A stretch of 42,625 nucleotides of DNA from Candidatus Bathyarchaeota archaeon (lineage in GTDB: Archaea > Thermoproteota > Bathyarchaeia > Bathyarchaeales > Bathycorpusculaceae), in assembly GCA_937873375.1 (NCBI GenBank), contig CALMWK010000086.1, forward strand, positions 1-42,625, in the 5' to 3' direction. The position numbers and the translations under genes are program-made. The notes beneath the pieces were generated by a model that was given only the letters and a program-made list of their open reading frames with translations, was not told the origin of the DNA and did no database searches. This document shows, piece after piece, positions 10,617 through 14,584 of the stretch (the first letter of the stretch is position 1; each line of letters begins with the position of its first letter).

Positions 10617-11558
10617 TCAGCGTATTTGTTTTAGCAGTTGGCATGCCATGCAGAGTTCGCCCACTGAGGGGTCTCCGCATTCTTTACACTCTTTAAATTC
10701 GCCTTTCTCCGTGATGCTGCTTATGGCGGGGCGTAGTTTTTCCAGAGACTTAAAAACCGTGAATTTGGTTCCCGCGTGCCGCTCTTCAATTTGGTTTAGC
10801 AATACGCGTATGTCGTTGCGCAACGCCTCTGAAGCGTACGGGCAGGGTGTACTCTGAAAAGGCAAACCCTTAACGTATGCATATAATGCGCTTTCTTTTT
10901 CAGGAATCTCGCACAGAGGCTTAACTTTTTGAACCAGCCGCGGATGTACTTGGTCAGTAACGGGTTTTTCAGATGCCAACCGCGTAATATCCCCATGAAA
11001 AACATTCAACAGCGAAGTCTGCACTTCATCATCCAGCGTGTGCCCCGTAGCAACCTTGTTCGCGCCAACTTCTAAGGCCGCAACGTTCAACGCTTTCCTG
11101 CGCAACACACCACAAAAAGCACAAGGTGTCAATTCATTTTTTCGTTCGCGCATCCGCTGAACTATTTCATCTAACGTGAAGCCATAAAGCGACTTAAAAG
11201 ATACACTGTGATTTTCAATTTTAAGTTTTTTACAGGTTTCCGCCGCAATTTCCAAGGCTTCATCTCGATAACCCTTTATGCCTTCATCAACTGTCACTGC
11301 CACAAGCGAAGCTCTTGGAAATTTCCGCTCCATACTTGCAAGAACATTCAGTAGGGTTATGCTGTCTTTGCCGCCTGAAACCGCGATGGCTATGCGGTCG
11401 TTGTAGCTGAGCATTTTGTAGCGTGTTATGGTGGCTCTGACTTTGTTTTCTATGGATTCAGAGAAGCACCGTTTGCAGAGCCTCTCGCCACTGTAGATTC
11501 GATGGAAAAAAGCTGTTCTGCGTTTGCACGCGGTACATTTCGCGGCGTTTCGGCTCAT
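10617..11558 (-). CDS. ttuA: tRNA 2-thiouridine synthetase TtuA/NcsA
   Basis: The 313-residue protein activates the C2 carbonyl of a tRNA uridine by adenylation and replaces the oxygen with sulfur. N-terminal zinc ligands C8, C11, C28 and C31 are followed by the PP-loop SGGKDS at 61-66. C146 and C149 (TPCAFCG) together with C239 (STPCPYA) are the three Cys that hold the Fe-S cluster in this family. A second zinc finger, C291, C294, C303 and C306, closes the protein. The family includes TtuA (T54) and Ncs6/NcsA (U34); archaeal members are usually assigned to U34 in tRNA-Lys, -Glu and -Gln. The start overlaps the leader of the divergent nucleotidyltransferase. Confidence 0.93.
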   Translation of the reverse strand: MSRNAAKCTACKRRTAFFHRIYSGERLCKRCFSESIENKVRATITRYKMLSYNDRIAIAVSGGKDSITLLNVLASMERKFPRASLVAVTVDEGIKGYRDEALEIAAETCKKLKIENHSVSFKSLYGFTLDEIVQRMRERKNELTPCAFCGVLRRKALNVAALEVGANKVATGHTLDDEVQTSLLNVFHGDITRLASEKPVTDQVHPRLVQKVKPLCEIPEKESALYAYVKGLPFQSTPCPYASEALRNDIRVLLNQIEERHAGTKFTVFKSLEKLRPAISSITEKGEFKECKECGDPSVGELCMACQLLKQIR

Positions 11559-11657
11559 GAAGTATTCACGTTAAGTAGTTTTGATTGGCGAATTACTAAT
11601 AAACCATTCACCCTAATTTCACTGGAAGAGACGATTCAGTTGACCAAGAAGCCTGAC

Positions 11658-12350
11658 ATGCGCCCAGACATAACAGAAGTCACCTACGACAGCGAACGCT
11701 GGAACTATCTGCAAACGTACAGAGAAAAAGCCGCACAAATAATCGCGGCACTAGAAAGGTTCCACCTGCAAGCCATAGTACACGGCAGCATAGCACGCGG
11801 CGACGTAACCAAAACCAGTGACATAGACATCTTCATAATTGACCCCCCCAGCTCTTTCCAAATCGAAACCGCACTGGAAACCGCAAAAATACGTGTAAAC
11901 GCGCGTTTGGTGGTTCAGGCAACGCCGTCTTACGCCATGAAAGCCTACATCGAACTTGACGAGGCAACGTCGGTCTCGTTTCCGTTGATGCGTATGCGAA
12001 ATGTGGAGCGTGAGTTTTACAGGTTCAGCGGCGAAGTAACCCTTGCACAGTTGAAGCAGAATTTGCGGGTGGCAGGCGTAGACAAACGACTAATGCTCAT
12101 CGAACCCGCTGAGAACGGGCACGTTGAAAGCAGCATCATTGGACGCGAAGATCAAACCGCAAAAACTCTAGGAGTCGCCGTGGAGACAGTATTAGATCGT
12201 GTTCATGCGTTACTAAAAAGAGATGCCGTAGGCAGAACAGGCACATTCATAAAACGGGAGCTGTCGCCTGACGAAACCTTCGAAATGGCACTTAAACATC
12301 TGTCTGACGAGAACCCTGCGGTGAGAAGAAGGCAAAAAAGCGACGCCTAA
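11658..12350 (+). CDS. Predicted nucleotidyltransferase (Pol beta superfamily)
   Basis: The 230-residue protein has the nucleotidyltransferase signature VHGSIARGDVTKTSDIDIFI at about residues 41-60: G43-S44 and the metal-binding D55-x-D57. The C-terminal part is helical with a possible helix-turn-helix (LGVAVETVLDRVHALLK). Members of this superfamily transfer NMP groups to proteins, RNA or small molecules; the substrate is unknown. The frame is open back to 11502, across the start of the divergent ttuA, so that extension is unlikely; ATG 11658 or TTG 11640 are the realistic starts, and a box A TACTAATAAAC near 11593-11603 fits both. The stop overlaps the stop region of the convergent TBP gene by 4 bp. 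Confidence 0.8.
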   Translation: MRPDITEVTYDSERWNYLQTYREKAAQIIAALERFHLQAIVHGSIARGDVTKTSDIDIFIIDPPSSFQIETALETAKIRVNARLVVQATPSYAMKAYIELDEATSVSFPLMRMRNVEREFYRFSGEVTLAQLKQNLRVAGVDKRLMLIEPAENGHVESSIIGREDQTAKTLGVAVETVLDRVHALLKRDAVGRTGTFIKRELSPDETFEMALKHLSDENPAVRRRQKSDA

Positions 12351-12934
12351 GCTTTGGCGTGCGCCCCTTCAGCTTCAGGGTAGTATATAAGTTCTTTTTC
12401 TTCCAGCAACTTCTGGATCTTGTCAACAGCTTCGTAGACTTGTTCTTCTTTCTTGGCGCCTACACAGACAAGTTTTCCAGCGCTGAAAATTAGGAAAACC
12501 ACTTTCGGCTCGGGCATTCTAAATACCGCGCCTGGAAACTGCTCTGGTTCATACATGACCCGTTCAAGCTTGTAAACGAGGCTTTCAAGGTCAATTTCTC
12601 CGCCTAACTCAGCGGAAGCAACGATATTTTGGATCATAACAACCGGTTTCTCGGTTATTTGGATGCCTTGCCCTCGGAGCTCTTTGACTACTTTTTCCAC
12701 TGCGCTGCGTGATTCTTTCTCGGATTTTGCGCCAGTGCAAACCATTTTGCCAGTGCCGAAAATTAGAGTGGCAGTTTTGGGTTTTTTCAGACGGAAAACC
12801 AAGCCGGGGAAAACGCTGGGGTTGTATTCGGTCTGAGGGAATTTTTCCACAATTTTTTGTAAATCAATTTTCTGGTTCAAAGATACGGAGGCTACAATGT
12901 TTTGGATGGAGATTAACGGTTTTCTTTTGCTCAT
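12347..12934 (-). CDS. tbp: TATA-box-binding protein
   Basis: The 195-residue protein is two direct repeats of the TBP saddle fold. Repeat 1 contains IQNIVASVSL, FPGLVFRLKKPKTATLIFGTGKM and VCTGAKS; repeat 2 contains IQNIVASAEL, FPGAVFRMPEPKVVFLIFSAGKL and VCVGAKK. The paired Phe residues that kink the TATA box and the FGTGK/FSAGK strands are present. It binds box A and recruits TFB and RNA polymerase. Length is normal. The ATG at 12934 is about 31 bp from the nearest of three TATA units in its own promoter (12958-12994), so autoregulation is plausible. It lies 100 bp downstream of the pelota gene on the same strand. Confidence 0.97.
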   Translation of the reverse strand: MSKRKPLISIQNIVASVSLNQKIDLQKIVEKFPQTEYNPSVFPGLVFRLKKPKTATLIFGTGKMVCTGAKSEKESRSAVEKVVKELRGQGIQITEKPVVMIQNIVASAELGGEIDLESLVYKLERVMYEPEQFPGAVFRMPEPKVVFLIFSAGKLVCVGAKKEEQVYEAVDKIQKLLEEKELIYYPEAEGAHAKA

Positions 12935-12957
12935 TTAGATTCCCGTGTATTGGTACA

Positions 12958-12994
12958 TTTATATATAAAGGGGTATATAAAGGGGTATATAATA
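12958..12994 (-). promoter_or_regulatory. Tandem TATA array in the TBP gene promoter
   Basis: On the + strand TATATAAAGGGG is repeated exactly at 12962-12973 and 12974-12985, with a partial third TATATAA at 12986-12992. Read in the direction of the TBP gene this is CCCCTTTATATA twice and then a final TATA. Centres lie about 31, 43 and 55 bp before the ATG. Only the nearest has normal core-promoter spacing, so the upstream units may be extra binding sites for TBP itself. Confidence 0.75.
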
Positions 12995-13035
12995 GGCTAC
13001 CTTATAAGCACTCTGCATCGGAAATACACTTTTTT

Positions 13036-14124
13036 TTATTGAGAATCTGAACGGTAAACTGGGAACCTCAGTAAACCTGCAATTCCGCCCAAAGCAAGCA
13101 ACTTGGAACCCGCTTCATGTTCAGTGCTGACCACGGTAACGCCGCCGTTGCGTTGTTCCACTTCACGCATGATTTTCTCCAAACTTAACCGATGGTCCCT
13201 CTCGGACTCCCGTAGCATCGTGTCTGCCAGAACCAGTTTTTCCACAGCACCCATGGTCACAGCGTTTTCAACGTCTACAACGCCGTAGGTAACGGTGGCG
13301 TCGCCTTTACCCAGCCGCTTCATAACTTCTTCCATAACTTCAGTTTCTTCGAGAACCCGCATCTGATGCGCTGCTCTTAGAAGAACGCCTGAGCGGAGGG
13401 CTTCGTAGATGCCGCTTACGCCACCGTTGTTGACACTTTTTACGTCTGCAACTGACGCTGAGATGTCGCTGGCGTGTTCTGAAATGTACTTGGCGAGGTC
13501 GTTTTTCATGAAGCTTACACCCAAAATGACTATAGAGTTATGAGTGGGCATCCAAAGCTGACGTAAGCTACTAAGAACACGTTTAAAACATTCATTTGTG
13601 GCGCCGCTTCGCTTCTCAGCTTCTTTCTTGCCGGGCAGCTTTATGCGTTCGTCCACTCTGACTTCGACGCCATACTGCTTAGTCTCCGCGATGGCGTAGC
13701 CTTCATCGTCAATAGCTACAATCAGCAGGGCTTTTTCGGTTTCACTTGCCCGCTGCAACCTATCCAACACATGTTTCGGCCACTCCTTTTTCACTATGGT
13801 AACAGGCTGATTCAAAGCAACACTTATGGTGTGGTGTGCGCCTGTGGGAATTATGTCTGGGGCGTGGCAGATGATGCCGTGAACACGAAGCTTACCCAAA
13901 AACTTGTCCCACCCAACAGATTCAACGGTGACGCCCATGAAGGCTGAGACGCGTTCCCCACTTTTCGGTCGGGAGGCTTCCGTGTCTGATTTTATGGCTC
14001 GCGAAGAATAAGCGTAGACCTCGTCGCCCTCGTAGATGACGTTGTAGAGGTGCCAAAGGTCATCCGCGGAGTCAGGAACCACTTTGATGAAGCCTTGGTG
14101 CAGGTTTTTCTCGGTTATTTTCAC
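13036..14124 (-). CDS. pelA: mRNA surveillance protein pelota (Dom34)
   Basis: The 362-residue protein has the three domains of aPelota: an N-terminal Sm-like domain (VKITEKNLHQG, then DSADDLWHLYNVI), a central eRF1-like domain 2, and a C-terminal L7Ae-like domain. It binds empty ribosomal A sites on stalled ribosomes and, with aEF1A and ABCE1, splits them. The long frame begins at 14238, but the first 38 residues are unlike pelota and overlap the divergent gene region. The GTG at 14124 aligns with the normal beginning of the family, and no in-frame ATG is nearby. Nuclease activity is claimed for some archaeal members; I see no evidence either way. It is transcribed toward the TBP gene. Confidence 0.92.
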   Translation of the reverse strand: MKITEKNLHQGFIKVVPDSADDLWHLYNVIYEGDEVYAYSSRAIKSDTEASRPKSGERVSAFMGVTVESVGWDKFLGKLRVHGIICHAPDIIPTGAHHTISVALNQPVTIVKKEWPKHVLDRLQRASETEKALLIVAIDDEGYAIAETKQYGVEVRVDERIKLPGKKEAEKRSGATNECFKRVLSSLRQLWMPTHNSIVILGVSFMKNDLAKYISEHASDISASVADVKSVNNGGVSGIYEALRSGVLLRAAHQMRVLEETEVMEEVMKRLGKGDATVTYGVVDVENAVTMGAVEKLVLADTMLRESERDHRLSLEKIMREVEQRNGGVTVVSTEHEAGSKLLALGGIAGLLRFPVYRSDSQ

Positions 14125-14251
14125 GTGTGTGCATCTCAGTTGGCTATTCAAGTATGAGTTGAGGTAGAAATATGCTGTGGAAAACAGGGTTTCTTTGGAT
14201 AAGTGGCTGGTTTGGAAAACCTTAAATTCATTTGCCACCCCAAATTGGTTG

Positions 14252-14584
14252 ATGGTTATGTCTACAAAACTCGGTGATTACCTCTCGGAGTACATCCAAG
14301 GTCGCGTAGGCGTCTTCAAAAAATACCTCATAGCGGCGTTAGATAACAAAGACCAGTGCATTTGGTATTTGGAATCAAGCGAAGGCATGCTGGTGCCGTC
14401 TTCAGATTTGAAAAACTGTGAACTGCTACGTGATGCGCAACTTTTGAATGAGGACATACGAGTCTCAAGAAACGGCAGAAACACCTACAAAATTTATTGC
14501 TTAACCGATTTTGGCAGGAAAATTGCTCAGCAAATAAGGCAAGAAGGCTTAATTGACGAAGAAAAAGAAAACAAGGGCCCCTAA
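14252..14584 (+). CDS. Small winged-helix protein
   Basis: The 110-residue product has helical segments GRVGVFKKYLIAAL and LKNCELLRDAQLLNED, then a beta-hairpin wing (IRVSRNGRNTYKIYCLTDFG) and a final helix RKIAQQIRQEG. The recognition-helix-then-wing order and the YxLTxxG closing strand are typical of archaeal winged helix-turn-helix regulators. No ligand or metal site is seen. ATG 14252 lies about 28 bp from the box A TTAAATT (14222-14228), so the transcript is nearly leaderless; a second ATG at 14258 is equally possible. It is divergent from the pelota gene and could regulate either itself or that neighbour, which is inference. Confidence 0.65.
   Translation: MVMSTKLGDYLSEYIQGRVGVFKKYLIAALDNKDQCIWYLESSEGMLVPSSDLKNCELLRDAQLLNEDIRVSRNGRNTYKIYCLTDFGRKIAQQIRQEGLIDEEKENKGP

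What the first reader, a model, noticed from the sequence alone, without database searches (positions are those of the whole stretch)
12958..12994. TBP gene promoter carries an exact tandem array of TATA boxes
TATATAAAGGGG repeats exactly with a 12-bp period and a partial third copy directly upstream of the gene for the TATA-binding protein. Only the nearest copy has core-promoter spacing. The extra copies may titrate or load TBP and so form an autoregulatory sensor of TBP level.
Basis: partly seen in the sequence, partly recalled or inferred. Interest (0 to 1): 0.62.

Follow-up and report, generated by a model that had tools for sequence, protein, structure and literature searches.

The report
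Multi-TATA promoter of a TBP gene
In a family of uncultured archaea, the gene for the protein that recognises TATA boxes has a promoter with three or more TATA-like boxes, an arrangement very rare at other genes there; in this genome one box has been copied in tandem, and the promoter may measure the amount of the protein, although no experiment shows that yet.

Summary
The array is real: TATATAAAGGGG, 12-bp period, 2.6 exact copies at 12962-12992, 28-58 nt upstream of a TBP gene (minus strand, ATG at 12934) in a Bathyarchaeia MAG. It is not chance: 4 TATA-like boxes in 80 nt against 0 of 20,000 shuffles, and the longest short-period self-match among 241 upstream regions. The exact array is young: shared with one congener, degenerate in a second, absent from three others. 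What is old is a promoter with three TATA-like boxes (A, B, C, about 16-18 bp apart), kept upstream of this paralogue (tbp1) across much of the family and almost unique to it. The array is a 12-bp tandem duplication of box B; extra boxes also arose in other lineages. The claim that only the nearest copy has core-promoter spacing is contradicted: the middle copy sits at the conserved core position (about 43 nt before ATG, Shine-Dalgarno-like motif at -10), and the nearest lies where the promoter-proximal (melting) element should be. Best explanation: TBP-level sensing, with B as core TATA and TBP on flanking boxes competing with productive assembly. The architecture is well supported; the feedback is inferred. 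Rivals: redundant start sites, a dedicated regulator, tolerated slippage.

The parts
12347..12934 (-). tbp1, TATA-binding protein gene (195 aa), ATG at 12934
   Evidence: PF00352 E 1.3e-62; NCBIfam TBP models
12962..12992 (-). tandem array, unit TTTATATACCCC on the coding strand, 2.6 copies
12958..12969 (-). box C (nearest copy), TTTATATATAAA, at the promoter-proximal/melting position about 18 bp after... the core box of orthologues; here 12 bp downstream of B2
   Evidence: position against 49 orthologues; promoter-proximal element position from PMC5316973
12974..12981 (-). box B2 (middle copy), TTTATATA: predicted core TATA box, centre about 43 nt before ATG
   Evidence: 42.5 nt is the commonest box B position in orthologues; 46 of 49 lie within 38.5-48.5 nt
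12986..12992 (-). box B1 (distal copy), TTATATA: duplicate of box B, keeps the A-B spacing of relatives
   Evidence: comparison with G001, G003, G006
13002..13007 (-). box A, TTATAA, upstream TATA-like box
   Evidence: family alignment
12941..12944 (-). Shine-Dalgarno-like GGGA, 10 nt before ATG
   Evidence: the same motif peaks at 6-12 nt in generic genes of the congener G006
12950..12951 (-). predicted transcription start (inference: about 27 nt after the centre of B2)
   Evidence: spacing rule from PMC5316973; not mapped
13036..14238 (-). pelota gene, same strand, upstream neighbour
   Evidence: TIGR00111 E 2.5e-77

Best explanation
The array is a lineage-specific 12-bp duplication of the core TATA element (box B) inside an older tbp1 promoter that has three TATA-like boxes (A, B, C). 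B2, the middle copy, is the core TATA and starts a short leader with a ribosome-binding site. A, B1 and C are extra TBP sites that overlap the space needed by the complex at B2 and its melting or start region. Most likely, at low TBP only productive assembly at B2 matters, while at high TBP the flanking boxes fill and block it, so TBP limits its own synthesis. Shown by sequence: box architecture, conservation, gene specificity, duplication, core position. Inferred: start site, TBP binding to each box, and the negative sign of the feedback.
For: Box B sits within 38.5-48.5 nt of ATG in 46 of 49 orthologues, and the middle copy is the one at that place. TATA-like hexamers per 80 nt: 2.86 in tbp1, 0.34 generic, 1.3 tbp2, 0.5 in TBP genes of more distant Bathyarchaeia. 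A second TATA-like box at the C and A positions: 38 and 41 of 49 tbp1 against 1 and 2 of 41 generic TATA promoters. The B-C pair occurs 18 times in 91 genomes, 17 times at tbp1. The boxes change letters between lineages but remain TATA-like, as expected if TBP is the ligand. Extra boxes arose more than once. Precedent: in Haloferax volcanii raised TBP2 protein went with lower TBP2 transcript, and the authors suggest autoregulation (PMC4895103).
Against: No binding, start-site or expression data exist. C lies at the promoter-proximal A/T-rich position, where generic promoters are also somewhat A/T-richer, so part of its conservation may be for melting. The exact array is absent from three of five congeners with the gene. 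Orthologues are related, so counts are not independent.
Confidence: 0.42

Rival explanations
1. Redundant core promoters: A, B1, B2 and C each nucleate their own initiation complex, giving several start sites and robust or stronger expression, without feedback.
For: Complexes at A, B1 or B2 would all give an mRNA with the whole coding sequence and the Shine-Dalgarno-like motif (spacings). Box number is raised repeatedly in evolution.
Against: Box C would give a start about 2-4 nt before ATG and lose the Shine-Dalgarno-like motif, yet C is conserved. Other genes that need strong expression do not show such clusters in the sample.
Confidence: 0.24
2. Dedicated regulator: some or all of the boxes are operators for a separate DNA-binding protein that happens to like A/T-rich palindromes (TATTTAAATA; TTATATACCCGTAGGTATATAA in G006).
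For: C is a 10-bp palindrome in most of the family and B-C form an inverted repeat in G001, G003 and G006. tbp1 and tbp2 promoters share an AGATG-N2/3-TATA-like stretch that is rare elsewhere.
Against: The three boxes have different sequences, and all resemble TATA boxes; the sites are almost only at tbp genes, so the regulator would have hardly any other target. Complementarity just outside the C core is not above permuted flanks (P 0.12); wider positions give P 0.003-0.02 but rows are related, so this is inconclusive.
Confidence: 0.18
3. Tolerated slippage: the extra copy is a neutral short duplication in a promoter whose A and C elements are only A/T-rich context.
For: The exact array is limited to two species plus a degenerate third. 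Duplications of other periods occur elsewhere at this promoter.
Against: A and C are TATA-like in about 80% of tbp1 promoters but in 2-5% of generic TATA promoters. The copies in G002 and G005 have changed letters but are still TATA-like.
Confidence: 0.16

Closest known systems
[quoted passage not shown] PMC5316973)
   Same: Box B with a leader and a Shine-Dalgarno-like motif fits the layout; box C lies at the promoter-proximal position
   Different: A and C are full TATA-like boxes, and the window genome has a tandem duplicate of B; generic promoters of the same genus do not
Proposed TBP2 autoregulation in Haloferax volcanii (PMC4895103)
   Different: Inferred there from transcript levels; no cluster of TATA boxes is described in the passages read
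Eukaryotic TBP autoregulation model (PMC2928763)
   Same: TBP level feeds back on its own gene
   Different: Eukaryotic, a positive-feedback model, and the TBP promoter is thought to be TATA-less
Homotypic clusters of transcription-factor sites and negatively autoregulated archaeal repressors (own knowledge, not tested)
   Same: Repeated sites for one protein in the promoter of its own gene; competition with initiation
   Different: Here the suspected regulator is the general factor itself

Membership tests
Archaeal core promoter | TATA box at a fixed distance upstream of the start, with leader and Shine-Dalgarno-like motif | tested here: met
   Box B within 38.5-48.5 nt in 46 of 49, motif near -10 in most; transcription start not mapped
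Archaeal core promoter | BRE (A-rich) directly upstream of the TATA box | tested here: inconclusive
   Generic motif search gave a weak A-rich stretch before TTTA; tbp1 box B is preceded by AGATG or, in the window, by CCCC
TBP-autoregulated promoter | Several TBP sites beyond the core TATA, conserved and specific to the TBP gene | tested here: met
   Sequence only:
TBP-autoregulated promoter | TBP binds the extra sites and its level changes transcription of the gene | not testable with these tools
   Needs footprints and in vitro transcription
Conserved tandem array | Exact array kept in relatives | tested here: not met
   Exact 20-mer only in G000 and G005 among 7 genus genomes; G002 degenerate
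Operator of a dimeric dedicated regulator | Palindrome with covarying arms across orthologues | tested here: inconclusive
   Adjacent flanks P 0.12; wider positions P 0.003-0.02 with related rows

The most novel reading that the evidence does not exclude
A general transcription factor is the direct sensor of its own level through a cluster of its own recognition boxes: TBP occupying surplus TATA boxes shuts the core promoter of tbp1. This would be homeostasis of a basal factor without a dedicated regulator, kept across an archaeal family and tuned by duplication of boxes.
Probability: 0.35. Interest if true: 0.75.

Novelty: new variant of a known kind. Interest (0 to 1): 0.5.

Why it matters
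How archaea hold their basal transcription factors at a useful level is poorly known. A compact, conserved cis element nearly exclusive to one TBP gene makes direct self-sensing testable with purified parts. It also shows that the two TBP paralogues of this family carry different, gene-specific promoters, which bears on why the cells keep two.

Tried and rejected
1) Nearest copy as core TATA: rejected, because orthologues hold B at about 42.5 nt and the nearest copy would give a leader too short for the Shine-Dalgarno-like motif. 2) Divergent promoter, or a promoter kept because of pelota: the upstream gene is on the same strand, and the promoter is also present where pelota is not adjacent (pelota found in 18 of 48 loci). 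3) Assembly artefact: a similar array is in an independent MAG, G005. 4) A wider regulon: the B-C pair and the 12-bp array are almost only at tbp1. 5) Extended palindrome at C as operator: adjacent flanks not above permutation, wider ones doubtful. 6) De novo motif search on 241 upstream regions gave only a weak A-rich/TTTA motif, so start-site claims rest on spacing. 7) The two TFB genes of the same genome show no TATA cluster (start codons assigned mechanically). 9) No paper on tandem TATA boxes at archaeal tbp genes was found in the open-access library; most subscription papers are not in it.

Full report
OBSERVATION. The window at 12958-12992 (plus strand) is TTTATATATAAAGGGGTATATAAAGGGGTATATAA. 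Two exact 12-mers TATATAAAGGGG stand at 12962 and 12974 and a partial third at 12986. It is the best-scoring tandem repeat of the window. The gene downstream is on the minus strand with ATG at 12934 and is a TATA-binding protein. On its coding strand the region reads GTGCTTATAAGGTAGCCTATTATATACCCCTTTATATACCCCTTTATATATAAATGTACCAATACACGGGAATCTAAATG. The upstream neighbour, on the same strand, is pelota, so the roughly 100-nt intergenic stretch serves one gene.

WHERE IT IS. Named relatives recovered with the TBP alignment are nearly all labelled Candidatus Bathyarchaeota or Bathycorpusculum, so the window is from a Bathyarchaeia MAG. The genome has two TBP genes with products 65-67% identical and two TFB genes. 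The product of the window gene, tbp1, is 92-96% conserved in the genus. Of 91 family genomes, 88 have a TBP match. Orthologues like tbp1 (72% or more) are in a subset; several genomes show only the other type (about 60-67%), called tbp2 here.

RELATIVES. Among six genus members with the gene, the array is exact in the window genome and nearly so in G005. It is degenerate, but still a row of TATA-like boxes, in G002. It is absent from G001, G003 and G006, which have a single TTATATACCC followed by GTATATAAA. Spacings show what happened: in the window genome the distance from box A to the first B copy equals the A-B distance of relatives, and the distance from the second B copy to ATG equals their B-ATG distance. 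So the array is a tandem duplication of box B with its conserved tail (TTATATACYCC; tail conserved among 44 orthologues).

FAMILY-WIDE ARCHITECTURE. Upstream regions of 62 tbp1-like genes were read. Forty-nine have box B, TTATATA, most often 42.5 nt before ATG and within 38.5-48.5 nt in 46 of them. They commonly have box A (TTTATAAATAGATG) about 16 bp upstream and box C (TATTTAAATA) about 18 bp downstream, and a Shine-Dalgarno-like motif near -10. In 400 kb of the congener G006 plus the window, TATA-like hexamers gather about 30-55 nt before the start codon and Shine-Dalgarno-like motifs at 6-12 nt. The middle copy of the window is therefore the best candidate for the core TATA. With TATA at about -27 (PMC5316973) the start site should be near 12951.

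IS IT SPECIAL? The mean number of non-overlapping TWTAWA in the last 80 nt is 2.86 for tbp1, 0.34 for 241 generic upstream regions (mechanically called open reading frames, so start codons are uncertain) and 0.36 for shuffled tbp1 regions; the window has 4, not reached in 20,000 shuffles. Generic TATA promoters have a further TATA-like hexamer at the C position in 1 of 41 cases and at the A position in 2 of 41; tbp1 in 38 and 41 of 49. Orthologues are related, so these are not independent counts, but the tree spans several genera. The B-C pair occurs 18 times in 91 genomes, 17 times at tbp1 (compared with the gene places). tbp2 genes have fewer such hexamers, mean 1.3 in 20, and a different conserved element: AGATGTATTTATAAA occurs 28 times in 91 genomes, 25 times at a tbp2 gene. 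TBP genes of more distant Bathyarchaeia have a mean of 0.5. A TATA cluster is thus not general for TBP genes; it marks tbp1 of this family.

RECURRENT EXTRA BOXES. G027 has a 13-bp duplication of B (GGCTTTATATACT twice), G028 a further TTATATAC between B and C, G016 a doubled C, and G024 and G020 a further box upstream. These lie outside the window's genus in the gene tree, so extra boxes arose more than once. Whether by selection or slippage the present data do not separate.

MECHANISM. The most likely ligand of all boxes is TBP, because the boxes differ in letters between lineages yet remain TATA-like, and because the cluster is at the TBP gene. Boxes 12-18 bp apart are unlikely to carry two complete initiation complexes (inference from footprint size). 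TBP at A, B1 or C would then compete with the productive complex at B2, and C also covers the region to be melted. That gives negative feedback on TBP level. An archaeal precedent exists in Haloferax volcanii, where raised TBP2 protein went with lower TBP2 transcript (PMC4895103). The opposite sign, loading or strengthening, cannot be excluded.

RIVALS. Redundant start sites, a dedicated regulator using the partly palindromic boxes (flank test inconclusive), and tolerated slippage with promoter-proximal A/T preference (generic promoters are also A/T-richer there) remain. None explains both the gene specificity and the TATA-like nature of all boxes as simply, but none is refuted.

VERDICT. The exact array is a young variant of an older conserved multi-TATA promoter, which is the more interesting finding.

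Noticed in passing
G000:C149 (L012, L251) and tbp2 orthologues in the family: The second TBP gene has its own nearly gene-exclusive promoter 15-mer AGATGTATTTATAAA (25 of 28 occurrences in 91 genomes lie at a tbp2 gene).
   Followed up: partly
L246 and L257 around position 1500 (reverse strand): The tbp2 15-mer also precedes a stretch alike in G060 and G083 (CAACAGCAACCATAGATGTATTTATAAA ... GTGGCGAT.TCTCCCGC) with no obvious coding start; possibly a non-coding RNA; no Rfam match.
   Followed up: partly
L059-L072 upstream regions: More divergent tbp1-like genes (72-79% identity) lack boxes A-B-C; many share ATCGAAACAGTTATCGTGTTGAA instead, a different conserved promoter element.
   Followed up: no
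window 14177-14584 (+): 135-aa reading frame whose start overlaps the start of pelota on the other strand; looks like a small winged-helix protein by eye but matches no Pfam or NCBIfam family.
   Followed up: partly
window 11502-12350 (+): Nucleotidyltransferase-domain protein (PF01909) whose end overlaps the end of tbp1 by a few bases (convergent genes).
   Followed up: no
L089 12433-15206: CRISPR-like array in the congener G006: repeat CTTTCAATTCCCGTTACTTGGGATTATCCTTTGAAGC with spacers of about 38 bp.
   Followed up: no
L085 18707-19789 and L090 7078-7767 (minus strand), upstream regions: Two probable regulator genes in G006 (by eye an AbrB/PhoU-like protein and a winged-helix riboflavin-kinase-like protein) are among the few others with three TATA-like hexamers upstream; possible autoregulated promoters.
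   Followed up: no
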